From: Sycon ciliatum
Taxonomy: Eukaryota; Porifera; Calcarea; Leucosolenida; Sycettidae
Direction: 5' to 3'
Length of the DNA stretch: 64,000 nt
Assembly (NCBI RefSeq): GCF_964019385.1
Contig: NC_088654.1
Coordinates: forward strand, 17,733,674 to 17,797,673
Shown here piece by piece: positions 8,283 through 43,800 of the stretch (positions within the stretch are counted from its first letter, which is position 1; each line of letters opens with the position of its first letter). Position numbers and translations under genes: made by a program. Below the pieces are notes generated by a model that saw nothing but the letters and a program-made list of their open reading frames with translations, searched no databases and was not told the origin of the DNA.

Positions 8283-8700
8283 AAATTAAAGGAAAAGGAA
8301 AAGATTAAACGAACTTAGAAGTTGCGACTTCGGCGGTAATAGTCATGAAGTTGATTGTTCCAACTAGGAACACACGCTTCTTGCCGAACTTGATACTTGA
8401 CTGACTCACGACTGCCATCCGGAGCACACGAGGAGCACGTCGCACCTTCCACTCGGCAAACCTGCAAGAAAGCACCACTCCCTGCTCAATACACGGTGTT
8501 TCGGGGAATTCACCCCTCATCAGTTGAGCTTGAGTAGGCTGAGGAAGATTGTGCCTGAAAAGCACCACTTATATACTGCTCTCCAGGCCAAACCATCACT
8601 AGGGATACAAACTTATAGAGACGCTTTGTTTCCAGCGCGACAAACACCTCGTGAAGCTCCAGGTAGCAGCGTGAGTCAGAGTCTCTCATGGAGTTGTGAT
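8283..8700 (-). mobile_element. Retrozyme-like repeat unit (solo copy)
   Basis: This stretch matches the minus-strand units of the tandem array at 39.36-40.80 kb, from the start-proximal TCAGTCAAG region through the ribozyme and the inverted hairpin (near 8555-8595) to the segment near 8690. One complete hammerhead lies within it. A second, partial unit follows in the opposite orientation (8706-8842 and 9029-9060), making an inverted pair. Confidence 0.7.
8475..8538 (-). ncRNA. Type I hammerhead ribozyme
   Basis: On the minus strand the core reads CTGATGA, then stem II GGGG/CCCC closing a 6-nt loop, then GAAA. Stem I next to the core is GCTCAA with TTGAGC, six perfect pairs, extended past a small internal loop by about six more. 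Stem III is CA/TG closing the triloop CCG, and the cleavage triplet is GUA before 8489. All invariant core bases are present. Self-cleavage is inferred from structure only. Confidence 0.8.
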
Positions 8701-8712
8701 AAACAGACTGAA

Positions 8713-8757
8713 CTGATGAGGGGGGAATTCCCCGAAACACCGTGTATTGAGCAGGGA
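8713..8757 (+). ncRNA. Hammerhead relic with broken stem I
   Basis: CTGATGA, a GGGG/CCCC stem II, GAAA and the stem III/cleavage region are intact on the plus strand. The 5' strand of stem I reads ACTGAA instead of GCTCAA, so only two pairs next to the core remain. This is where the partial inverted unit begins, so the break looks like a junction rather than point mutation. Confidence 0.55.
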
Positions 8758-8842
8758 GTGGTGCTTTCTTGCAGGTTTGCCGAGTCGAAGGTGCGACGTG
8801 CTCCTCGTGTGCTCCGGATAGCAGTCGTGAGTCAGTCAAGTA

Positions 8843-15070: not shown

Positions 15071-15785
15071 TGTCGCAATATGTGCGAATGTCGGACTGTC
15101 AATATTTGAATACATGTTACGAGTGCAATTTGAATTTACAGTATTTACAATTTGTCTTTACGTCGCACTCTTACCTAAGGTATATCCCAGGAGCGATAGG
15201 GTCCAGGTCCGCTGCCCATAGCTAAGTTCTAGGTATAGTAAGTATTTGTAGTAAGGTAGCTTGACACATGACTAGCTTCGCTCTATAATCTTGTTCTGAA
15301 ATGAATTGCATGTGTGGAATTATTTGATCTCTTCGATCGAACTGTCGATTTATTTGAACTGCATTTTTCTGATTTATTTATTTCCTTTTTTTGCATGCAC
15401 GCACTGGCAGCGCTCCATTGCAGCCGCGATACGCGATCGCGGGATCGCTACGCGCGTACGATGCACTTCCCAAACTGGCTGGCTTTTGCACGCAGCAAAA
15501 TCATGATAATCTATTTTTGGTTTCACATTTTTTGCACACAGTACGCTGGCACGGCATGCGTACGCTGCCGTGCGAGCGAATCCTTTTTCGGAGCGCTCTG
15601 TTGTAGTGCTTCGTGTCCTTCTCTCGGTAGTTTTCTCTCTCCAAGCAGTGTTCTTTATGTGGTGAAAGAAGTGACAACGAACCAGGTCTCTCTCCCATCT
15701 TGAAGTTGTCGCGGCAGCTGCTGGCCAGCTGTCCGCGACAGTGTGTGCATGATTGTACAAGTATAAAGTGAAGTGTTTTACCACA
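15071..15785 (+). repeat. 5' LTR of the BEL/Pao element
   Basis: It begins TGTCGCAATATG and ends TTTTACCACA, with TATAAA near its 3' end at 15762. Open frames within it recur identically in the 3' LTR and are not genes. Confidence 0.93.
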
Positions 15786-15791
15786 TAAAAT

Positions 15792-15807
15792 TGGTACCGA
15801 AACCCGA
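15792..15807 (+). other. Primer binding site of the BEL/Pao element
   Basis: TGGTACCGAAACCCGA starts six bases after the LTR. Its complement ends in CCA, as expected for a tRNA 3' end. The tRNA identity was not determined. Confidence 0.7.
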
Positions 15808-15831
15808 TCATAGATCCTGCAGCCTGTCATC

Positions 15832-18800
15832 ATGACACCTGCTGTGGCATCGGTGAAGGCCCTCGGTAGGGCGCTTGCTGTGCACATCGATGCGTTCCAA
15901 GACGAAACACGGCAATGCGACGCTTGGCTGGCAAGTGCCAACGCTATCAATGACGACGGTAATGAAAGCGACAGTGAGTCGCACGCTAAAGCAGAGTCGA
16001 CACCAACATACCGTAAGCTACGAGTATTCCTAACTGAATTTAAAGAATATGTGGACAAATTGAGTAGCCTTCTGGAACGGTATGGGATCGCGGTGTATGA
16101 ATGGAATCCCGTCGATAAAGACGGCAAAAAAACAAAAAAAATGGCCTTAGAAGAACACGAAAATTGGTTAATGGACGAGTCAAGGTATTGCAAACGTTTG
16201 GCACAAATGAAGTCCATGATGGTGGACATGAAAGAACAGCAAATGGTAGAGGCTGGTCGACCGGCAGCAATCAAGCAAGAACCTGTGGAAGCGGCCCACA
16301 GTCTGCCGGTAGACACCCCAGCCATCGCAGAAATTACAAAACTGCTTGCCAGCCACACGGAAACGCAAAAATCAACGCAAGAATTGCTAAGTAAGTGTGT
16401 CAAGGGCGGTCAGTATGCCTCGGCCCTAAAAACCGTGGAGCTACCAAAATTACAACTGAAAAAATACGGGGGTGATCCGGTAAAATTCAAAGAATTCTGG
16501 GACACCTTCCGGTCCACCATTCATGAAAACAAGGTGTTGTCAAATGTTCAAAAGTTAACTTACCTGAAGGAAACGGTTAAAGACAAAGCCCTGAGTGCCA
16601 TATCTGGGCTTGAGGTGAGCGATGCCAACTATGCAGTGGCACTTACAATTTTGGATGACCGTTTTGGCAATAAGCAATCACAAGTTGACGCGCATTATGT
16701 GGCATTAATTGACTTACCCGGTGCAACCCATCAAACACAATCTTTGCGCAAGTTGTATGACGGCATCGAATCACACATGCGTAGCCTGACGGCAATTGCT
16801 CAGGATGTAAACCAAGACATATTTGTGTCTCTAATCAAACGGAAACTGCCTGAGAGCACCATGCTGCAACTCGAACTCTCCAATACCAAAACGGGGGAAT
16901 GGACAGTTGCAGAACTACGCAAGGCTCTAGGTCAATACATCCGGGCACGAGAAAGGGCGGAACCACAAACAACAAAACTCGATGCCAAATCAGAATCAGC
17001 AGAAAGTTTCAGACCGCCAGTCTCGCCATCCAGTGCATTCCGGGCATCTGGAGAAACACTACTTGCCCACGCAAAAGGAAACCCAAAATGTTGGTACTGT
17101 AAGGGTCCCCATTTCTCGGATACTTGCAAAAAGTTTAATGGTCTTCACGAAAGAAAAACGGAAATCGGTAGCAGATGTTTTATCTGCTTGCGGGATGGTC
17201 ACAGTGCCCGCCAATGCAAAGACCCATGGGCTTGCTTCCATTGCAAGAGAAAAACACACCATCGCAGCATTTGTCCCACACTGTTTTCAAACACGACAGA
17301 CAACCCATCAAGACAATCAGACAGAGCAAAGAGCCCAGGGCAAAACACAACGGCAGCACTTAGTGTTAATGCAGAGGAATTTATTCCTGCCAGCAGTGCT
17401 ATGCTCTCCGCAGGAGAAAATGTAATAATGCAGTGTGGTACGACAGTGATTGCGAATCGCCATGGCAACGAATCACAGAATGCAAGATTAATGTTCGACA
17501 CAGGGTGCAGTCGTTCTTTCATTACCAAGAAAATGGCAAAAGAACTCAATCTGAAATCCACGGGTCGGGAAACGTTGTCTCTGGCGGGGTTTGGTGACAG
17601 TAAGCGCAAATCGCAACAGCTCAATGTGGTTGAAATTCAAGTACAGTTTTTGGATGGGTCCTCACAAACCCTCACGGTCAATGTTGTGCAAACCATCTCC
17701 TGTCCGGTCAGAAAATACCCGATCGACCCTGAGAAATACCCAATGCTAAATCGTGTACATTTGGCGGACTCGCTCAGTCAGCATGCAGAAGATGTAACCA
17801 TTGATTTACTGGTCGGCAATGACTACTACTTTGACGTAATGGGCAATGAGCACATTCGCCTCGACGACGGCTTAATGCTCCTAGACTCTAAAATTGGGTT
17901 TATCCCCTCGGGGAGAATCCTGATGGAAAGCCAAGATCATGAAGCGCCCGTAATGTTGGTTTCGGGCATACGGTTACCTGAAACGAGAATGCCAGAATTT
18001 ACAATCGAAAATTTTTGGAAAACCGAATCAATTGGCATTGAAGATCCTCTGGAGGATAAATCTCAAGATGAGCAAGCAATGGAGATTTTCGACAACAGCG
18101 TCGACTTCAAAAATGGGCGGTATGAGGTCAAGTGGCCACGGAAGCCAGACGCTACGGAACCACCACGCAATTTCGCTCTGGCTTTCGGTCGCCTGCAGTC
18201 TCTCATGAAACGAATGGCAGGCAAGCCACAGGTCAAACTTAAATACGATGAAACAATCAGAAATCAGGAAAAGATGGGCATAATCGAACGGGTCCCCAAT
18301 GCCGGTCCAGAAGGGACTACGCAACGGGCACATTACTTGCCACATCACTGTGTAGTCAAACCGGGTAAAACCACAACGAAAGTCCGCATCGTGTACGATG
18401 CCTCGGCCAAATCCAGCAAGGAGCAAAAAAGCCTCAATGAATGTCTGCTCAGAGGGCCGGTCCTTCTTCCAGACTTAGCTGGTTTGCTACTTCGATTCCG
18501 CATGCATGATATTGCCATTGTTAGCGATATCGAGAAAGCCTTTCTGCAAGTTGGCCTCGCAGAGGCAGACCGAGATACAACGCGGTTCCTGTGGTGGGAT
18601 GACTTGAATGGGCCTTGCACCAAGGACAATCTTGTCACTTATCGGTTTTGCAGGATACCGTTCGGGGTAATCTCCAGCCCATTCCTGCTGAGTGCAACTA
18701 TCAACACGCACTTAAAACGAACAGACAACGAAATTGCGAAGATGATTCTCGGTAACACGTACGTCGATAATGTTATTGTTGGAGCCAATACAGTAGATGA

Positions 18801-21552
18801 AGCCAAACGTATTTATGATGAAACAAAGCAAGTGTTTACTCAGGCGTCCATGAACCTCCGTGAATGGGCTTCGAACAATTCCGACTTCCTCTCTCACATT
18901 CCAGAATTTGACAAAGTTTCCGACACGGTTATGACCGTACTTGGTATGGAATGGTGTACACCCACCGATCAGATTTCGTTGGTCGGTCATGACGTTGAGC
19001 ACGTGATCGTTCGGACCAAACGCCAAATGTTGCAGGTCATCTCAAAGTTCTTTGACCCAATGGGCCTGCTATCTCCCATACTGTTGCAACCGAAAATCCT
19101 GATTCAACACCTGTGGAAATTGAAATGCGACTGGGACGACATCCTCCCAACAGAAATTATAAATAAATGGAAAGAAGTCACAGGTGATCTAAAGCAGATC
19201 CACGAAATTCAAATTCCGAGACGGATGACAGTCGCACACTCAGGGGCAGTCACATACACACTTCACTGTTTTTGTGATGCCTCTCACACCGCATATGCAG
19301 CGTGTGTGTACCTTGCGGTTGTCAACAAGCAGTCAGGTTGTGACTCTTGTCATCTTGTGTTTAGTAAAACCCGCCTAGCCCCCATCAAGGAATTAACAAT
19401 ACCGAGACTAGAATTAATGGCGGCCTTGATCGGTATTCGGTCGTTACGATTTGTAGTCTCACAATTGAATTTCTCGGAACAACCCAGACTGGTGCTGTGG
19501 TCTGATTCGCAATGTGTGTTACATTGGATCAAGAAACCTGAAAAACACGGTACATTTGTGGACCGGCGCTTGAATGAAATCCGGTCTCTGTCGTCGGTTG
19601 AGTACCGGTATGTGGACACAGCTGAAAACCCCGCAGACACTCCTTCTCGCGGGGCCACTGTGGACACACTGAAAAATAACAAGAACTGGTGGCACGGGCC
19701 CCAGTGGATTAACAATGAGAAAGGTTGGCCATCGGTGTTGGTGATTCCTGCGAACACCGTGGAGTTGGAAAAGTCTGCCAACACCTTACTGGCGGCGGCG
19801 GAGGGTCCTACGGAGAACCCAATGATAATGAATTTAGAAAGGTATTCGTCTTGGGGAAAACTGATACGTGTCTCAGCATATGTTTTGAGAGCCATAGAAT
19901 GTATGCGTGGTAATAAATGTAATGGGTTTCTCACATCAAAAGAAATCAAGAATGCTACAATGGTCTGGCTACGATATTTGCAACGTACGGAATTTCCAGA
20001 CACGCTCAAGTTAATTCAGAAGGGAAAGCGAAATGATCTACCCAACAAACTCGGCCTGTTCATGGATGAAAACGAAATAATGCGGTGCAAAGGACGGCTG
20101 GAAAATGCAAATATACCGCTACGGTCTAAATTCCCAGTCCTAATACCCAAACACGGAATAATCACAACTTTGCTAATTGAAGAATGTCACAAACGGCTAA
20201 TGCATGGCGGTGCGAGTCATACACTGATGTTACTTCGTACTGAATATTGGGTACCGCAAGGACGGTCAACGGTGCAGCGTATCCTTAAACAATGCAATGT
20301 ATGTCGCAAGGCAGAGGGTGGCCCATTCAAAATGCCACGGCTGGCACCCCTACCACGCGATCGGTTAACTACATCATGTGCCTTTTCGTATACCGGCTTG
20401 GACTACTTTGGGCCAATGTACGTGAAACAATCAGGAGTAACTACTAAGGTATGGGTTTGCTTATTCACTTGCCTAACTACTAGAGCAGTACATTTGGAAT
20501 TAGTCGATGACATGACTGCTGCTGCATTTATGCTTGCATTGAGAAGATTTGTTTCAAGACGAGGAACACCCAGTCGAATATTGTCGGATAATGCATTGCA
20601 GTTTAAAGTGGCTAAGGAAGCAATAGAACTATTGTGGGATACAATTTCGCAAGATGCAGATGTACATTCATACTTAAGTGCTACTGGATCTAGGTGGACA
20701 TTCATTGTGGAGCTGTCCCCTTGGATGGGTGGCATCTACGAACGAATGGTGCAGGTCGTTAAGCGCGCCCTGCGTAAGTCAATTGGTCGAAAATGTTTGT
20801 CCACAACGGAATTAACCACTGTTCTTGCAGAAGCAGAAGCAATAGTCAATACGCGGCCACTATTGTATGTGGGAGACATGGTGGATGGTGACGATATCCT
20901 CACCCCATCTCATTTTGTAACGATGAACCCCAGGCTAGGCATGCCTGCAATTAGTGTAATGGACGATACTGACTATAATGAACAGCAAAGCTCGGCGCAG
21001 ACTTTGGTGGAAACGTATCGCGTTGGTGCCACTATCCTTTCCAGCTTTTGGAAACTGTGGCAGACCGGCTATCTGAGTAGTTTGCGTGAACGTGGAAGTT
21101 ACCGGCTGCCCGAGAAGCGAGGTGCCGTAGAGCGTGAGCCAAGTACAGGGGATATCGTACTAGTGAAAGAGGAAAGGATGCCACGCGGCACTTGGAAAAT
21201 TGGGAAAATTAACAAAATACACCGGAGCAACGACAATAATGTAAGGTCAGCAACAGTTGAATTGCCAAGCGCCAAGACGCTAAGGCGACCACTCAATTTG
21301 CTGTACCCGATGGAACTGAATATTAATAATAATGGAAAAAACAATGAAAAAAACGATTCGGCAAACAACGGTTCGGCGGACGGCGGCACGGTAACAAACA
21401 ACAACGGCGCTGCAGATAATGATCAGCAGCTAATCCAAAATGACGGCGGTACAGTGCACGGCGGCACAGAAGTGAAAGCAAGAGGCAAGCGGCAAGCGGC
21501 CAAGAAGAGTATGGAACAGTTAAGACAATTGATTGTGTCGGATTCAGTTTAG
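15832..21552 (+). CDS. BEL/Pao gag-pol polyprotein, 1906 residues
   Basis: One uninterrupted frame starts at an ATG 25 bp after the primer site. Residues about 200-350 match the BEL gag region. Three zinc knuckles lie at about 420-485 (CWYC, CFIC, CFHC starts). An aspartic protease DTG is near 556. Reverse transcriptase spans about 850-1100, with the first Asp in SDIEKAF (D899). RNase H has D1149 and D1225. Integrase has an HHCC-like finger near 1453-1490 and D1524, D1586 and E1637, then a BEL C-terminal domain and an Asn/Gly-rich tail. The RT active site reads YVDN (residues 977-980, AAT at 18769-18771) where YVDD is expected, so this copy's RT is probably inactive unless supplied in trans. 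Length is normal for the family. Confidence 0.95.
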   Translation: MTPAVASVKALGRALAVHIDAFQDETRQCDAWLASANAINDDGNESDSESHAKAESTPTYRKLRVFLTEFKEYVDKLSSLLERYGIAVYEWNPVDKDGKKTKKMALEEHENWLMDESRYCKRLAQMKSMMVDMKEQQMVEAGRPAAIKQEPVEAAHSLPVDTPAIAEITKLLASHTETQKSTQELLSKCVKGGQYASALKTVELPKLQLKKYGGDPVKFKEFWDTFRSTIHENKVLSNVQKLTYLKETVKDKALSAISGLEVSDANYAVALTILDDRFGNKQSQVDAHYVALIDLPGATHQTQSLRKLYDGIESHMRSLTAIAQDVNQDIFVSLIKRKLPESTMLQLELSNTKTGEWTVAELRKALGQYIRARERAEPQTTKLDAKSESAESFRPPVSPSSAFRASGETLLAHAKGNPKCWYCKGPHFSDTCKKFNGLHERKTEIGSRCFICLRDGHSARQCKDPWACFHCKRKTHHRSICPTLFSNTTDNPSRQSDRAKSPGQNTTAALSVNAEEFIPASSAMLSAGENVIMQCGTTVIANRHGNESQNARLMFDTGCSRSFITKKMAKELNLKSTGRETLSLAGFGDSKRKSQQLNVVEIQVQFLDGSSQTLTVNVVQTISCPVRKYPIDPEKYPMLNRVHLADSLSQHAEDVTIDLLVGNDYYFDVMGNEHIRLDDGLMLLDSKIGFIPSGRILMESQDHEAPVMLVSGIRLPETRMPEFTIENFWKTESIGIEDPLEDKSQDEQAMEIFDNSVDFKNGRYEVKWPRKPDATEPPRNFALAFGRLQSLMKRMAGKPQVKLKYDETIRNQEKMGIIERVPNAGPEGTTQRAHYLPHHCVVKPGKTTTKVRIVYDASAKSSKEQKSLNECLLRGPVLLPDLAGLLLRFRMHDIAIVSDIEKAFLQVGLAEADRDTTRFLWWDDLNGPCTKDNLVTYRFCRIPFGVISSPFLLSATINTHLKRTDNEIAKMILGNTYVDNVIVGANTVDEAKRIYDETKQVFTQASMNLREWASNNSDFLSHIPEFDKVSDTVMTVLGMEWCTPTDQISLVGHDVEHVIVRTKRQMLQVISKFFDPMGLLSPILLQPKILIQHLWKLKCDWDDILPTEIINKWKEVTGDLKQIHEIQIPRRMTVAHSGAVTYTLHCFCDASHTAYAACVYLAVVNKQSGCDSCHLVFSKTRLAPIKELTIPRLELMAALIGIRSLRFVVSQLNFSEQPRLVLWSDSQCVLHWIKKPEKHGTFVDRRLNEIRSLSSVEYRYVDTAENPADTPSRGATVDTLKNNKNWWHGPQWINNEKGWPSVLVIPANTVELEKSANTLLAAAEGPTENPMIMNLERYSSWGKLIRVSAYVLRAIECMRGNKCNGFLTSKEIKNATMVWLRYLQRTEFPDTLKLIQKGKRNDLPNKLGLFMDENEIMRCKGRLENANIPLRSKFPVLIPKHGIITTLLIEECHKRLMHGGASHTLMLLRTEYWVPQGRSTVQRILKQCNVCRKAEGGPFKMPRLAPLPRDRLTTSCAFSYTGLDYFGPMYVKQSGVTTKVWVCLFTCLTTRAVHLELVDDMTAAAFMLALRRFVSRRGTPSRILSDNALQFKVAKEAIELLWDTISQDADVHSYLSATGSRWTFIVELSPWMGGIYERMVQVVKRALRKSIGRKCLSTTELTTVLAEAEAIVNTRPLLYVGDMVDGDDILTPSHFVTMNPRLGMPAISVMDDTDYNEQQSSAQTLVETYRVGATILSSFWKLWQTGYLSSLRERGSYRLPEKRGAVEREPSTGDIVLVKEERMPRGTWKIGKINKIHRSNDNNVRSATVELPSAKTLRRPLNLLYPMELNINNNGKNNEKNDSANNGSADGGTVTNNNGAADNDQQLIQNDGGTVHGGTEVKARGKRQAAKKSMEQLRQLIVSDSV

Positions 21553-21612
21553 TTTAATTATTTGAGCATGCATGTTTGTCCTAGTACCTAGGCTTGCTGT
21601 TCTCGGCGGGAG

Positions 21613-22327
21613 TGTCGCAATATGTGCGAATGTCGGACTGTCAATATTTGAATACATGTTACGAGTGCAATTTGAATTTACAGTATTTACAATTTGTCTT
21701 TACGTCGCACTCTTACCTAAGGTATATCCCAGGAGCGATAGGGTCCAGGTCCGCTGCCCATAGCTAAGTTCTAGGTATAGTAAGTATTTGTAGTAAGGTA
21801 GCTTGACACATGACTAGCTTCGCTCTATAATCTTGTTCTGAAATGAATTGCATGTGTGGAATTATTTGATCTCTTCGATCGAACTGTCGATTTATTTGAA
21901 CTGCATTTTTCTGATTTATTTATTTCCTTTTTTTGCATGCACGCACTGGCAGCGCTCCATTGCAGCCGCGATACGCGATCGCGGGATCGCTACGCGCGTA
22001 CGATGCACTTCCCAAACTGGCTGGCTTTTGCACGCAGCAAAATCATGATAATCTATTTTTGGTTTCACATTTTTTGCACACAGTACGCTGGCACGGCATG
22101 CGTACGCTGCCGTGCGAGCGAATCCTTTTTCGGAGCGCTCTGTTGTAGTGCTTCGTGTCCTTCTCTCGGTAGTTTTCTCTCTCCAAGCAGTGTTCTTTAT
22201 GTGGTGAAAGAAGTGACAACGAACCAGGTCTCTCTCCCATCTTGAAGTTGTCGCGGCAGCTGCTGGCCAGCTGTCCGCGACAGTGTGTGCATGATTGTAC
22301 AAGTATAAAGTGAAGTGTTTTACCACA
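21613..22327 (+). repeat. 3' LTR of the BEL/Pao element
   Basis: Same 715-bp length and termini as the 5' LTR. A short purine stretch, GGCGGGAG, precedes it and may serve as the polypurine tract. Confidence 0.93.
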
Positions 22328-33974: not shown

Positions 33975-34045
33975 AGATGTTCTGCACATTTAAATTTCAG
34001 CCTCCATGGCTCCAACTCCCTTCCGTCAAGTACTTTAAATTTTCT

Positions 34046-34662
34046 GTCTCTGTTAGGCCTAGGGTATTGCCTGTATGAACTGTGTGATGTCTCTGTTAGG
34101 CCTAGGGTATTGCCTGTATGAACAGTGATGTCTCTGTTAGGCCTAGGGTATTGCCTGTATGAACTGTGATGTCTCTGTTAGGCCTAGGGTATTGCCTGTA
34201 TGAACTGTGATGTCTCTGTTAGGCCTAGGGTATTGCCTGTATGAACTGTGATGTCTCTGTTAGGCCTAGGGTATTGCCTGTATGAACTGTGATGTCTCTG
34301 TTAGGCCTAGGGTGTTGCCTGTATGAACTGTGATGTCTCTGTTAGGCCTAGGGTATTGTCTGTATGAACTGTGATGTCTCTGTTAGGCCTAGGGTATTGC
34401 CTGTATGAACAGTGATGTCTCTGTTAGGCCTAGGGTATTGCCTGTATGAACAGTGATGTCTCTGTTAGGCCTAGGGTATTGCCTGTATGAACAGCGAAGT
34501 CTCTGTTAGGCCTAGGGTATTGCCTGTATGAACAGTGATGTCTCTGTTAGGCCTAGGGTATTGCCTGTATGAACTGTGATGTCTCTGTTAGGCCTAGGGT
34601 ATTGCCTGTATGAACTGTGATGTCTCTGTTAGGCCTAGGGTATTGCCTGTATGAACTGTGTG
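34046..34662 (+). repeat. 41-bp tandem satellite, 15 copies
   Basis: The unit contains TGTTAGGCCTAGGGTATTGC, and I count 15 occurrences of TAGGCCTAGGG. Units differ by single bases (AACTGTGATG or AACAGTGATG; one GTGTTGCC). The near-identity implies recent amplification. There are no unique spacers, so this is not a CRISPR-like array. Confidence 0.95.
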
Positions 34663-38610: not shown

Positions 38611-39362
38611 TTATTATTATTATTATTTATTCTTCTTTTACTAGGGAATTCCCAACAGGCGTCAGCGCCTTTTTACAGGGAACCCTAGGTATAATTTGAT
38701 GGATGAGCGAAATTCAGCTGGTGAACTAGACATGCGGCAAGCCGGTGGAAGTGTATTCCACCTGGCAGCGCCCAAATAAGAAATTGCACTAAAGCCATAT
38801 CGGGTGTTAGCGGGGGCAGAACAAGAGAAGCAGAGACTTGACCACGGGTGGTGGCTGCAGTGCGAGCACCATGGGCGCGCAAGGTAAAGCGGTCTCGCAG
38901 AAGAGGACTAGCAAGTCCATTCAGGCAGCGGTAAACAAATACATAGGTTTTTAAGTTGAGGCGTTTCTCAAGGGCGTACAAGTTAGTATGACTGTATAGA
39001 AGAGTGGTGGGAGTCATTCTATCCAACGAAAATATTCTCTTTAATGCTACGCGGCTGGCAGTAAGAAGCTTGTCATATAGGGCTTGTGATAAGCAATGAA
39101 TATATGCAGTGCTGCCAAACTCAAATGTGGACTGAATGATCGATAAATAGAAAAGTCGTTTGCCAAAAATGCTGATATTCTGCTTTGCATGGACAAACGC
39201 TCCGACCTTCCTATTGACATTTGCACATACTGCATCCACTTGGGTTGAGAAAGACAGATGTTCGTCAACCAGTATTCCTAAGTACCGAGCGTAAGCAGAT
39301 GGGACTATGGAAGTGCCCCAGCAGTTTGCTCCCCACACTGGAGCTCGCGCTATTCCGCCGAC
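38611..39362 (-). pseudogene. 5'-truncated LINE, C-terminal RT region
   Basis: The minus-strand frame 39374-38685 reads a LINE thumb/C-terminal region (ARYLGILVDEHLSF, LFYLSIIQSTFEFGS, RTAATTRGQ). It closely parallels residues in the RT at 41810-43519. Catalytic motifs are lost by truncation. The 3' untranslated part ends with CCTTTTTACAGGG words and an (ATT)n tail on the plus strand at 38611-38632. Its 5' edge abuts the retrozyme array, and about 40 bp of the junction recurs within the array. Confidence 0.8.
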
Positions 39363-39452
39363 TTTACTTGACACTTGACTGACTCACGACTGCCATCCAG
39401 AGCACACGAGAAGTCCATCGAACCTTCGACTCGGCAAACCCGCAAGAAAGCA

Positions 39453-39516
39453 CCACTCCCTGCTCAATACATAGTGTTTCGGGGAATTCACCCCTCATCA
39501 GTTGAGCTTGAGTAGG
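39453..39516 (-). ncRNA. Type I hammerhead ribozyme, array unit 1
   Basis: Same core as at 8475: CTGATGA, GGGG/CCCC stem II, GAAA. Stem III is CA/TG with triloop CTA, and GUA precedes stem I TTGAGC, which pairs with GCTCAA. Cleavage is predicted between plus coordinates 39467 and 39468. Confidence 0.85.
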
Positions 39517-39929
39517 CTGAGGAAGATTGTGCCTGAAGAGCACCACTTATATAGTGCTCTCCAGGCACAAACATCACCAGGGATACAAACTTACAGAGAC
39601 GCTCCGCTTCCAGCGCGATAAACACCTCGTGAACACCAGATAGCAGCGTGAGTCAGTGTCGCTCCTGGACGGTGAGACAGACGTCGAGGACCCTCGGTCA
39701 TTCGCAACGCTGTCACCTCCAAGCCAACTAGTCGCAAGCCCGCGCTGGGCACAACAGTATGAAGTAGTGGTTGCGACTTCGGCGATGATTTGTAAGAAAG
39801 GTTTGCTCCCCACACCGGAGCTCGCGCTATTCCGCCGACTTTACTTGACACTTGACTGACTCACGACTGCCATCCAGAGCACACGAGAAGTCCATCGAAC
39901 CTTCGACTCGGCAAACCTGCAAGAAAGCA

Positions 39930-39993
39930 CCACTCCCTGCTCAATACACAGTGTTTCGGGGAATTCACCCCTCATCAGTTGAGCTTGAGTGGG
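39930..39993 (-). ncRNA. Type I hammerhead ribozyme, array unit 2
   Basis: Identical core with triloop CTG. In the outer part of stem I a T-G pair of the other copies is a C-G pair here, a change that strengthens pairing. Cleavage is predicted between 39944 and 39945. Confidence 0.85.
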
Positions 39994-40361
39994 CTGAGGA
40001 AGATTGTGCCTGAAGAGCACCACTTATATAGTGCTCTCCAGGCACAAACATCACCAGGGATACAAACTTACAGAGACGCTCCGCTTCCAGCGCGATAAAT
40101 ACCTCGTGAACACCAGATAGCAGCGTGAGTCAGTGTCGCTCCTGGACGGTGAGACAGACGTCGAGGACCCTCGGTCATTCGCAACGCTGTCACCTCCAAG
40201 CCAACTAGTCGCAAGCCCGCGCTGGGGACAACAGTACGAAGTAGTGGTTGCGACTTCAGCGATGATTTGTAAGAACTTGACACTTGACTGACTCACGACT
40301 GCCATCCAGAGCACACGAGAAGTCCATCGAACCTTCGACTCGGCGAACCTGCAAGAAAGCA

Positions 40362-40425
40362 CCACTCCCTGCTCAATACACAGTGTTTCGGGGAATTCAC
40401 CCCTCATCAGTTGAGCTTGAGTAGG
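40362..40425 (-). ncRNA. Type I hammerhead ribozyme, array unit 3
   Basis: Identical core with triloop CTG. Cleavage is predicted between 40376 and 40377, giving a 432-nt monomer with unit 2. Confidence 0.85.
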
Positions 40426-40437
40426 CTGAGGAAGATT

Positions 40438-40477
40438 GTGCCTGAAGAGCACCACTTATATAGTGCTCTCCAGGCAC
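40438..40477 (-). other. Retrozyme hairpin with TATA-like loop
   Basis: On the minus strand GTGCCTGGAGAGCAC pairs with GTGCTCTTCAGGCAC (one G-T), and the intervening bases contain TATATAA. The same hairpin occurs at about 39532-39571, 40009-40048 and 8555-8595. It lies just before each ribozyme. Confidence 0.7.
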
Positions 40478-40972
40478 AAACATCACCAGGGATACAAACT
40501 TACAGAGACGCTCCGCTTCCAGCGCGATAAACACCTCGTGAACACCAGATAGCAGCGTGAGTCAGTGTCGCTCCTGGACGGTGAGACGGACGTCGAGGAC
40601 CCTCGGTCATTCGCAACGCTGTCACCTCCAAACCAACTAGTCGCAAGCCCGCGCTGGGCACAACAGTACGAAGTAGTGGTTGCGACTTCGGCGATGATTT
40701 GTAAGAAAGAGACGCTCCGCTTCCAGCGCGATAAACACCTCGTGAACACCAGATAGCAGCGTGAGTCAGTGTCGCTCCTGGACGGTGAGACATAGTACAT
40801 TATTGTTATTATTATTTGAACAAACGGCGAGGAGACAACAATTTGATAACCGCAATCAGTAATACAAGCTGGATCGACATTTGTGTACACTGTATTCATG
40901 TATTGTAAAACTGTGGAGACAATGTGCAATAAAACGATGAAAATGTGAAGAAATTGTGTAGAGAAAGAAAGG

Positions 40973-41010
40973 GATTCAAACAAGTTTTCGTACAACACTC
41001 ATCAGGAATC
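40973..41010 (-). ncRNA. Hammerhead-like fold, foldback left arm
   Basis: GATTC, CTGATGA, GTG/TAC stem II with TTG loop, GAAA, short stem III, then GAATC. A competing GTACAAC/GTTGTAC hairpin exists. Confidence 0.35.
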
Positions 41011-41030
41011 TTCGTTGTACTAAAGTTAAA

Positions 41031-41809: not shown

Positions 41810-43519
41810 CCCACTGCATCAATTTCGTCGCTGACTGATACGTTTGCGGCCATTGTTCAAGACACCAACAGGCCTGGGGTTCTACAAATTCCACCTGAAG
41901 ACAATGAGCAGCTACCTCATCTCACGAATTTCCAACCAGTGACAGTACAACACGTGTCTGATATTCTGAAGTCTCTTAATTTGTGCAAATCACCAGGTCC
42001 AGACAACGTGCTACCATCCATACTGAAGAATGGTGGAGATGCTATTGCTGAGTACCTCACGGACATAGTGAACGAGTCCCTCCAAACTGGTAATGTCCCC
42101 ACCGTCTTTAAGCAAGCTATCATAAGTCCACTTATGAAATCTGGAGACCCTGATCTGGCGGCAAACTACCGCCCAGTTTCGCTGCTGCCTATATGTGCCA
42201 AGGTATTAGAAAGAATAGTACTGGACCAGATAATGAAATTCTTCGCAGATAATGGCATTGAACACGTACCAGACTCTCAATTTGCATACCGTCGCAACCA
42301 CTCTTGCGAAGACTGCTTGACTCTAGCTGTGAATAGATGGCTTTCTGCATTGGATAGCAACGAATACTGTGGTGTCATCTTCGCTGACATGAGCAAAGCT
42401 TTTGACAGGGTGGCACACTCCGCCCTCATCCAGAGTCTACATGACACAGGCATCAGAGATGTTGCCTTGAACTGGTTTTGTAGCTACCTGTCTGACAGAA
42501 TACAAACTGTTAGAGTTGGTCAGGAACTTGGACAGTCACGCCCATGCTCCCGAGGAGTGCCCCAAGGCTCCGTTCTGGGCCCAGTCTTGTTTTGTATCTA
42601 CATTCGCGACATAACACCCTGTTTTAAGTTTAGCCAAGACCAGGAATATGCCGATGATATTGCATTTTATGTCCGGCATAGTGACTGTGATACTGTGTTG
42701 GAGCGTCTCACTGCGGACCTTGCTGCTCTGGACAGCTACATTACAGGGAAGGGACTGGTTCTCAACCCTGATAAGACACAATTTCTGCTATTACGTCGGC
42801 TAACTAGTCCCTTACCCACCACTGTGTCCATATCATGCCGCAACTCCACTCTCTATCCTGCGCACACAGCCAAATACCTGGGCCTCATTGTGGATGAGCA
42901 CTTGGCATTCGATGCTCAAGTAGAGCGAGTTTGCATTGCCGTCAAGCAGAAGGTCGGAGCCTACAAGCATGCCAGGCAGAACCTGAACCACAGAGCGCGT
43001 CGTCTTTTCTATCTATCTATTATTCAATCCACCCTTGAGTATGCTAGCTCTGCCTACATTAACTGTCTATCTCACCGTTCATACAACCAGCTGATCACAG
43101 CCAGCCGTACTAGTCTTAAAAGAATATTTGCCCTTGACCGCAGAACTCCCACTGAGACACTGTACGCTTACACCAAGATCTACACACTAGAGCAACGCTT
43201 AAATTTCAAGCGATACGTCTTTGTCTTTCGCTGTCTGCATGGTTTATCTAGCCCACTTCTCAGCCTCCTATTCACTCCCCGCTGCACTGGCCCACATTCT
43301 GCTGCCACAACCCGGGGCCAAGCTATAGCTGCTCTTGTCTTGCCTGCCTGCCACTCCCGGTATGGTTTCCATTCCATTGCGTATCTTGGTGCCGACAGAT
43401 GGAATGCGCTGCCTCCATCTTGTCGCCTGGCCGAGTCGCCTGCTTTGTTTCGCGCTCACACAAAGTCTCATTTAGGGTTCCCAGTAAAAAGGCAACATTG
43501 CCTGTTGGGAAATCCCTAA
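41810..43519 (+). pseudogene. LINE reverse transcriptase, long intact frame
   Basis: The frame of about 570 codons is open from 41810 to the TAA at 43517. It contains the NYRPVSLLP, FADMSKAFD, GVPQGSVLGP and YADDI motifs of a non-LTR reverse transcriptase. A thumb and a conserved C-terminal tail follow, ending near the TTGGGAAATCCCTAA words and an (AAT)n tail at 43530-43550. Motif style fits the CR1/Jockey/L2 group. The RT is intact, but the endonuclease is truncated and separated by stops, so the element cannot move alone. Similar dead copies are at 38611 and 47060, and a tail-only copy at 57135. Confidence 0.85.
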
Positions 43520-43618
43520 CAAAATAAGAAAAAAAAATAATAATAATAGTGTTATTTCTCTAACTTAGATTTTCTATAATAGTTCAATTTTGTTTTCAGT
43601 GTCCTTTTGTACAACGAA

Positions 43619-43656
43619 GATTCCTGATGAGTGTTGTACGAAAACTTGTTTGAATC
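43619..43656 (+). ncRNA. Hammerhead-like fold, foldback right arm
   Basis: Inverted twin of 40973-41010: GATTC, CTGATGA, 3-bp stem II, GAAA, UUU, GAATC. Confidence 0.35.
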
Positions 43657-43800
43657 CCTTTCTTTCTCTACACAATTTCTTCACATTTTTCATCGTTTTA
43701 TTGCACATTGTCTCCACAGTTTTACAATACATGAATACAGTGTACACAAATGTCGATCCAGCTTGTATTACTGATTGCGGTTATCAAATTACTAATGTGC

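What the first reader, a model, noticed from the sequence alone, without database searches (positions are those of the whole stretch)
39363..40795. Tandem retrozyme array with intact type I hammerhead ribozymes
Seen: three units in direct repeat, each with every invariant hammerhead base, perfect inner stem I, GGGG/CCCC stem II and a 2-bp stem III. Differences between copies fall in the stem III triloop (CTA, CTG; CCG at 8.5 kb) or improve an outer stem I pair. Known: short stem III type I hammerheads in tandem repeats are typical of animal retrozymes, which make small circular RNAs. Inferred: minus-strand transcripts would self-cleave to 432- and 477-nt monomers.
Basis: partly seen in the sequence, partly recalled or inferred. 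Interest (0 to 1): 0.9.

Follow-up and report, generated by a model that had tools for sequence, protein, structure and literature searches.

The report
Ribozyme repeat spread by Penelope machinery
A short non-coding DNA repeat carrying self-cutting RNA sits in thousands of copies in an unnamed animal-like genome, and the shape of its insertions suggests it is copied from RNA circles by the enzymes of Penelope retrotransposons.

Summary
In detail: three units in direct repeat (39324-40792, minus strand), each with a complete type I hammerhead core at the stated cut sites. Rfam reports no hammerhead here, even permissively. The usual unit is 477 nt; the 432-nt form is a deletion found once in the genome. 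The exact 34-nt core occurs 2,944 times.

"Retrozyme" is right but incomplete. Of 29 two-armed insertions examined elsewhere, 28 end once near unit position 187 and once near 145-160, with head-to-head arms. This offset (most often 35 nt), the TTA/TAA targets and short target duplications match the published "tail" signature of Penelope-like elements (PLEs). Four PLE families of this genome show paired ends 34-38 nt apart; one shares the tail-end sequence (12 of 14 letters). In eight insertions, variants run through all covering copies in both arms, and cDNA ends do not pile up at the ribozyme cut, so each insertion seems copied from one monomer, most simply a closed RNA circle.

PLEs were already proposed partners of animal retrozymes; this adds genomic evidence. 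Cleavage, circles and transcription were not tested. The window copy itself is a rearranged one-armed array without a recognisable target duplication.

The parts
39324..40792 (-). Retrozyme array: in sense order unit 266-350, 145-477, 1-100 joined to 145-477, 1-477, 1-144. One-armed, no recognisable target duplication
39452..39515 (-). Type I hammerhead, copy 1 (triloop CTA); cut at 39467/39468
   Evidence: fold of the majority-unit motif
39929..39992 (-). Type I hammerhead, copy 2 (triloop CTG, outer stem I CCCACT); cut at 39944/39945
40361..40424 (-). Type I hammerhead, copy 3 (triloop CTG); cut at 40376/40377
39805..39821 (-). Hairpin GCTCC..GGAGC (unit 124-140), 12 nt before the commonest short RT start (unit 152); GTTCC..GGAAC in another subfamily
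39758..39792 (-). 35-nt tail (unit 153-187) between the two inferred reverse-transcription start sites
   Evidence: end positions in other insertions:
39547..39553 (-). TATATAA, TATA-like box in the loop of a long hairpin, 52 nt before CTGATGA
   Evidence: function inferred by position only
40275..40276 (-). Junction of the 45-nt deletion that makes the 432-nt unit and removes the hairpin
8310..8841 (.). Older two-armed copy (pieces about 90-93% identical, different subfamily): minus arm with intact hammerhead core (8499-8523) and tail end at 8310 by eye; plus arm with hammerhead core (8713-8737) whose stem I is cut by the junction

Best explanation
The array is a copy of a non-coding, non-autonomous retroelement (a retrozyme) with a 477-nt unit. 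Multimeric transcripts are cut by the type I hammerhead and ligated to 477-nt circles (inferred). The RT/GIY-YIG protein of a Penelope-like element in the same genome recognises a hairpin-plus-tail region that resembles its own start region, nicks both strands at AT-rich (ATT/TTA) sites, and starts reverse transcription from each nick at one of two places about 35 nt apart on the RNA. Each polymerase runs round the template, for more than six laps in the longest arm seen; the two cDNA ends are then joined, mostly through short microhomology. This gives head-to-head inverted tandem arrays with one tail end and one short end. Shown here: architecture, end positions, target bias, target duplications, single-monomer origin of both arms in several insertions, PLEs with similar geometry. 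Inferred: ribozyme activity, circles, trans-mobilisation.
For: (1) 28 of 29 two-armed insertions have exactly one end at unit 180-195 and one at 140-165; none has two of the same class (ends taken). (2) Among the first 100 of 2,944 exact cores, all 14 two-stranded clusters (of 63 clusters) run minus-then-plus, i.e. head-to-head. (3) 21 of 29 lie in TTA/TAA tracts; 485 exact tail-end-to-tract junctions in the genome, reversed control 0. (4) Of the other 8, 6 show 12-13 bp flanking repeats, counting end microhomology; mean of 8 is 10.75 against 3.6 for 56 mispaired controls. (5) Frangieh et al. 2024: two adjacent internal RT start sites, equal to the 30-40 bp genomic tail, ATT cutting, both strands extended. 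Adineta Penelopes: inverted pLTRs, 31-bp tail optionally on one, 8-10 bp duplications. (6) PLE families A-D here have short and tail ends 34-38 nt apart by eye, one of each in 4 insertions with both ends readable. (7) Family A tail end ACCGCTACTTCGTT (L050-L052) vs retrozyme ACCACTACTTCGTA. (8) 13 locus-variants occur in all covering copies of a locus, 9 of them over both arms (8 loci), 5 of these 9 in no other locus. (9) Array periods differ between arrays but are uniform within each of the 4 arrays with two or more spacings. (10) 1 of 52 inner ends lies within 2 nt of the cut. (11) Hammerhead region 1.1% diverged vs 12.8% elsewhere in 4 subfamily copies, after removing letters fixed by the search.
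Against: No RNA, cleavage or protein data. Rfam finds no hammerhead. A one-monomer origin would also follow if an uncut transcript of an internally uniform array were the template, or if gene conversion evened out units later; two variants (L016, L024) are in 2 of 4 copies only. Frangieh et al. found that hammerhead cutting was not needed for insertion in vitro, saw no RNA-seq ends at the cut, and saw no difference in RT start between top and bottom strands, which does not predict strict one-tail-one-short pairing. Exact short-end-to-tract junctions are far fewer than tail-end ones (56 vs 485), a larger gap than in my sample (5 vs 14). In PLE copy L050 one arm has a tail but the other breaks off early at neither site. 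No significant match of the unit to the PLE pieces fetched was found (best E about 1); the shared tail end is a 14-letter comparison by eye. LINEs in the window also have inverted copies.
Confidence: 0.75

Rival explanations
1. Same retrozyme, same PLE machinery, but the template is an uncut multimeric linear transcript rather than a circle; the hammerhead acts only later or not at all.
For: Frangieh et al. found insertion independent of hammerhead cutting and unprocessed RNA as the main substrate. Cut-site ends are nearly absent, as expected for uncut RNA too. A uniform source array would give uniform copies.
Against: The hammerhead region is far more conserved than the rest across subfamily copies, so cutting seems to matter. 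L009 has 6 full units in one arm and 4 in the other, and one variant is in all 11 covering copies; this needs a long uniform source transcript that escapes its own hammerheads.
Confidence: 0.2
2. The repeats are moved by a LINE through twin priming; the TAA tracts are LINE-style tails.
For: LINE frames lie in the window, and one has an inverted 3' piece (98.9% over 187 bp). Most insertions lie in TAA tracts.
Against: Insertions outside tracts have no tail of their own. The outer ends fall in two classes about 35 nt apart, one of each per insertion, which the papers read describe for PLEs. Similar geometry occurs in the PLEs of this genome.
Confidence: 0.04
3. Ordinary satellite DNA amplified by unequal exchange, with the hammerhead as a relic.
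For: Tandem repeats of near-constant period; the window array has a deletion seen nowhere else and odd ends.
Against: Dispersed over C1-C5, C7-C9, C11, C13 and C14 (and further contigs), with target duplications, two classes of ends and head-to-head arms.
Confidence: 0.02
4. A DNA transposon whose inverted ends are the outer 3' parts of the arms.
For: Outer ends are inverted relative to one another and flanked by short duplications.
Against: The two ends differ by about 35 nt, the inner junctions differ between insertions with short microhomology, unit number varies, and one-armed copies exist.
Confidence: 0.01

Closest known systems
Metazoan non-LTR retrozymes (Cervera and de la Pena 2020, PMC7229834; parts 1, 2, 4 of 6 and passages seen)
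   Same: Non-coding tandem repeats with type I hammerheads, many copies, target duplications where visible, self-paired circular fold.
   Different: 53.7% G+C against <45-50% in the paper; 477 nt against about 170-400 nt in its abstract (its discussion allows 150 to >1000 nt); stem III only 2-3 bp; head-to-head arms with a PLE-like tail (the word 'inverted' does not occur in that paper's main text); a TATA-like box.
Penelope-like elements, Penelope/Poseidon type (Frangieh 2024 PMC11167929, parts 1-2 of 4 seen; PMC3846280, passages seen)
   Same: Two 3' end classes about 35 nt apart, one per arm; head-to-head arms; AT-rich sites; short target duplications; hammerhead and TATA-like box upstream.
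   Different: No RT/GIY-YIG reading frame; the hammerhead has a perfect inner stem I; the unit is a sixth of the 2,935-bp period of the PLE arrays seen here.
Plant LTR retrozymes (PMC4918200, search listing only; described in PMC7229834 and PMC7761336)
   Same: Hammerhead retroelement thought to move through RNA circles.
   Different: Those have type III hammerheads, LTRs and 4-bp duplications, and a Gypsy partner is proposed.
Schistosoma W-elements / SMalpha (PMC8490949, passages only)
   Same: Repetitive, transcribed, type I hammerhead.
   Different: No PLE-type end signature mentioned in the passages seen.

Membership tests
Metazoan non-LTR retrozyme | Type I hammerhead with all core letters | tested here: met
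   activity itself not tested
Metazoan non-LTR retrozyme | Non-coding unit in tandem, many copies | tested here: met
   longest stop-free stretch of the circular unit 89 codons; no Pfam hit in two array frames
Metazoan non-LTR retrozyme | Low G+C (<45-50%) | tested here: not met
   53.7%. A published tendency rather than a mechanism; I therefore file it as a variant
Metazoan non-LTR retrozyme | Monomer of about 170-400 nt | tested here: inconclusive
   477 nt: outside the abstract's range and the earlier 150-450 bp, inside the 150 to >1000 nt of the discussion
Metazoan non-LTR retrozyme | Canonical hammerhead with loop 1-loop 2 contacts | tested here: inconclusive
   Stem I with internal loop and stem II with 6-nt loop present; contacts cannot be tested; stem III is minimal
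Metazoan non-LTR retrozyme | Expressed as linear and circular RNA | not testable with these tools
   no RNA data
Rfam hammerhead families | Score above gathering cut-off | tested here: not met
Penelope-like element | RT plus GIY-YIG reading frame | tested here: not met
   unit is non-coding; so not a PLE but a possible client of one
Penelope-like element | Two RT start sites giving a 30-40 bp tail on one end | tested here: met
   28 of 29 two-armed insertions have one end of each class; offset 26-42 nt, exactly 35 in 10 of the 28 (from the end list), blurred by microhomology to the tracts
Penelope-like element | Head-to-head inverted repeats | tested here: met
   14 of 14 two-stranded clusters among the first 100 of 2,944 cores
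Penelope-like element | AT-rich/ATT target and short target duplication | tested here: met

The most novel reading that the evidence does not exclude
One circular RNA is copied from both nicked strands of the same target: a PLE protein dimer places one polymerase at the tail site and the other at the short site of the same 477-nt circle, and both run round it, often for several laps. Each two-armed insertion then has one tail and one short end, and both arms share the same private variants. This two-headed rolling-circle target-primed reverse transcription would explain both animal retrozyme arrays and the long-known asymmetric PLE tail, including the 2,935-bp tandem PLE arrays in this genome.
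Probability: 0.45. Interest if true: 0.8.

Novelty: new variant of a known kind. Interest (0 to 1): 0.62.

Why it matters
A 2020 review states that animal retrozymes show no motif from which the partner retrotransposon could be deduced, and names PLEs/Terminons only as likely candidates (passages). Here the insertions carry the PLE end signature, and PLEs of the same genome have similar paired ends, so the partner question becomes directly testable. Variants shared by both arms are genomic evidence for a single-monomer (perhaps circular) template, and the one-tail-one-short pairing constrains how PLE proteins work. I found no report of this link in the listings of searches of the held library, which lacks most subscription journals.

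Tried and rejected
Reading one search suggested that 6 arms ended exactly at the hammerhead cut, as if run-off cDNA had recorded cleavage. Extending the matches across the unit boundary showed a BLAST end artefact: only 1 of 52 ends lies within 2 nt of the cut. The idea was dropped.

Rfam searches found no hammerhead. Treating the 432-nt unit as a second regular circle size was rejected (one place in the genome). A sequence match of the whole unit to PLE pieces was looked for and not found: best hits E about 1, the longest 32 letters at 78%. The enrichment of inner ends at unit 77-162 (17 of 52, p=0.01) is post hoc and not relied on. Genome-wide tail-tract vs short-tract counts (485 vs 56) do not confirm a 1:1 ratio. 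Scattered short-end positions, one-armed copies (outer ends L011, L012, L036, L060 tail; L029, L031 short) and subfamilies that share the tail may explain it, but this was not shown. The species was not identified.

Full report
What is there. On the minus strand of 39324-40792 lie three head-to-tail copies of a repeat, with successive hammerhead cut sites 477 and 432 nt apart. Each has the full type I hammerhead core. Inner stem I is GCTCAA/TTGAGC; an outer stem I (CTACT/AGTGG) lies beyond an internal loop; stem II is GGGG/CCCC with loop TGAATT; stem III is A-U, C-G, A-U with a triloop. A fold of the motif (typed from the majority unit) shows outer and inner stem I and stem II, stem III being too short; its energy is not exceptional (z -1.53, 16 of 200 shuffles fold at least as well). 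Rfam gives no hammerhead hit. I do not take it as decisive, because core, stems and conservation are direct observations, but no positive control was run.

Genome-wide family. The window is part of a 538-Mb genome in 313 contigs. It is unnamed; I call it animal-like from its elements only. The exact 34-nt core occurs 1,508 + 1,436 = 2,944 times, reversed control 0. A looser hammerhead pattern occurs 5,022 times against 18 in the control, in several sequence families. In a 14-sequence alignment of cores chosen by me, stem II differs between families but stays complementary by eye (GGGG/CCCC, GTGT/ACAC, GGTC/GACC, GGC/GCC, GACC/GGTC). Of 58 full units in L009-L041 and the window, 57 have 477 nt and one 476; the 57 give 53.7% G+C and most are 98.5-100% identical to the window unit. 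The 432-nt form's exact junction occurs once in the genome, in this window.

Insertion anatomy. I fetched 33 places, chosen from the best matches and therefore biased to young copies, and added the window and L057. Six (L011, L012, L029, L031, L036, window) are one-armed and were left out of the pair count; further fragments beside several of these loci were not counted. Of the 29 two-armed ones, 28 have one outer end at unit 180-195 and the other at 140-165; the exception, L010, has one end at 34. The offset is 26-42 nt and exactly 35 in 10 of the 28. L022 and L023 are near-duplicates, L027 and L039 share the same inner junction, and the inner pieces of L013 are only about 95-97% identical. 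Arms are head-to-head. In the less biased list of the first 100 cores (63 clusters on contig C1), all 14 two-stranded clusters have the head-to-head order. 21 of the 29 lie in TTA/TAA tracts. Of the other 8, 6 have 12-13 bp flanking repeats (including end microhomology), L018 has 7 and L010 has 4. Tail end followed by a tract occurs 485 times in the genome, reversed control 0; the exact short end at 152 followed by a tract occurs 56 times, control 1.

Of 26 inner junctions examined, 21 have 0-13 nt of overlap, L016, L027, L032 and L039 have 1-3 extra letters, and L014 has 24. The 52 inner 5' ends used (L011, L013, L014, L023, L039 and the window left out) are compatible with a uniform spread round the unit (KS p=0.39; rotation-free test p=0.06). 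One end lies within 2 nt of the cut.

One template per insertion. Comparing copies within each locus (pieces under 96% identity dropped), 112 locus-variants had at least two covering copies: 97 were in one copy only, 2 in two of four, 13 in all copies. Of the 13, 9 (in 8 loci) span both arms, and for 5 of the 9 (L019, L020, two in L021, L040) the variant was absent from all 91-126 copies at other loci. In L009 one variant is in 11 of 11 copies over both arms and in 6 of 86 elsewhere. Array periods vary between arrays (472, 477, 478, 479, 480, 482, and one spacing of 442) but are uniform within each of the 4 arrays that have two or more spacings. Both facts point to a single monomer as template for the whole insertion. 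A circle is the simplest such template; an uncut transcript of a uniform array, or later gene conversion, would also fit. The unit folds as a circle with -200.6 kcal/mol against -163.0 (sd 7.0) for 100 dinucleotide shuffles, 72% paired.

Penelope-like elements in the same genome. A GIY-YIG search gave 13 matches; 10 of the 13 loci (L043, L044, L046, L047, L049-L054) carry a hammerhead-like motif. The frame at L053 has GIY-YIG (25.0 bits, cut-off 22.6) as its only Pfam hit, no match in solved structures and a YIDD motif by eye. It gave 74 matches (a capped count), including a family with a 902-codon open frame in tandem arrays of period 2,935 bp (2,938 in some) in both orientations. Pieces of families A-D show a short and a tail end 34-38 nt apart, by eye. 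In four insertions with both ends readable (A: L065/L053; B: L072/L071; C: L054; D: L069) one is tail and one is short; in a fifth with two arms, L050, one arm has the tail and the other breaks off early. For family E only a short end was seen (L074). Target duplications by eye include ATGTACAGTT for B and ACTAATATTC for C; L051, L068 and L069 end in TTA/TAA tracts. All five families fold a hairpin shortly before the short end, and a TATA-like box before the hammerhead was seen by eye in A, B, D and E. The retrozyme has both: the hairpin GCTCC..GGAGC 12 nt before unit 152 and TATATAA 52 nt before CTGATGA. In another retrozyme subfamily (L064, window copy at 8.5 kb) the hairpin is GTTCC..GGAAC, a compensatory change. 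The tail end ACCACTACTTCGTA differs from that of family A (L050-L052), ACCGCTACTTCGTT, in 2 of 14 letters. No significant longer match was found.

Conservation of the hammerhead. Copies come from the ten loci. In four diverged ones (L059, L064, L062, L063), after removing the 16 letters fixed by the search that found them, the hammerhead region differs at 2 of 176 positions against 219 of 1,709 elsewhere (p=5e-8; 8e-6 without the near-duplicate L063). L055, little diverged, showed no difference and was not in this count. An old copy in L033, found without regard to the hammerhead, has a broken core.

Literature. I read parts 1, 2 and 4 of 6 of PMC7229834 plus passages, passages of PMC7761336, PMC3846280 and PMC8490949, and parts 1-2 of 4 of PMC11167929. 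Animal retrozymes: type I hammerheads in tandem, about 170-400 nt in the abstract, low G+C, circular RNA shown by northern blot; PLEs named as a strong candidate partner because of shared features. The review says the repeats show no motif to deduce the partner. PLE biochemistry: two adjacent internal RT start sites equal to the genomic tail, ATT cutting, both strands extended, no start-site difference between strands, hammerhead cutting not required in vitro. My contribution is that this retrozyme's insertions show those PLE signs.

The window copy itself. It is one-armed, starts at unit 266, jumps from 350 to 145, lacks 101-144 in one unit and ends at 144 against LINE sequence, without a recognisable target duplication. 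All three discontinuities fall next to the hairpin at 124-140; template skipping over it is a possible cause, not tested. So the window array is a poor specimen of a clear family.

Verdict. Observation confirmed; interpretation partly supported. It works like a retrozyme and inserts like a Penelope. It fails one descriptive trait of published animal retrozymes (G+C) and is large for them, so I file it as a new variant of a known kind.

Noticed in passing
window 40840-41025 and 43604-43790: A LINE reading frame (41810-43519) has a 187-bp piece of its 3' region in inverted orientation at its other side (98.9%), like twin priming.
   Followed up: partly
window 15305-22245: BEL/Pao-type retrotransposon with a 1,912-codon open frame and matching repeats on both sides.
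   Followed up: partly
L069 705-3035: Family D hammerhead copy that is a 2.3-kb inverted palindrome (99.5%).
   Followed up: no
L066 792 and 1330; L067 795: Another hammerhead family (stem II GTGT/ACAC, stem I GCTGT/ACAGC) in head-to-head arms (L066) or single (L067); possibly a second retrozyme.
   Followed up: no
L027 and L039: Two insertions at different sites share the same inner junction (unit 432/36 with one extra T), as if a two-armed copy had itself been copied.
   Followed up: no
G000 C1:78524354-78537896: Five-unit tandem array of a PLE with a 902-codon open frame and period 2,935 bp, suggesting multi-lap copying of the autonomous element too.
   Followed up: partly
window 34045-34660: Array of 15 copies of a 41-bp repeat.
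   Followed up: no
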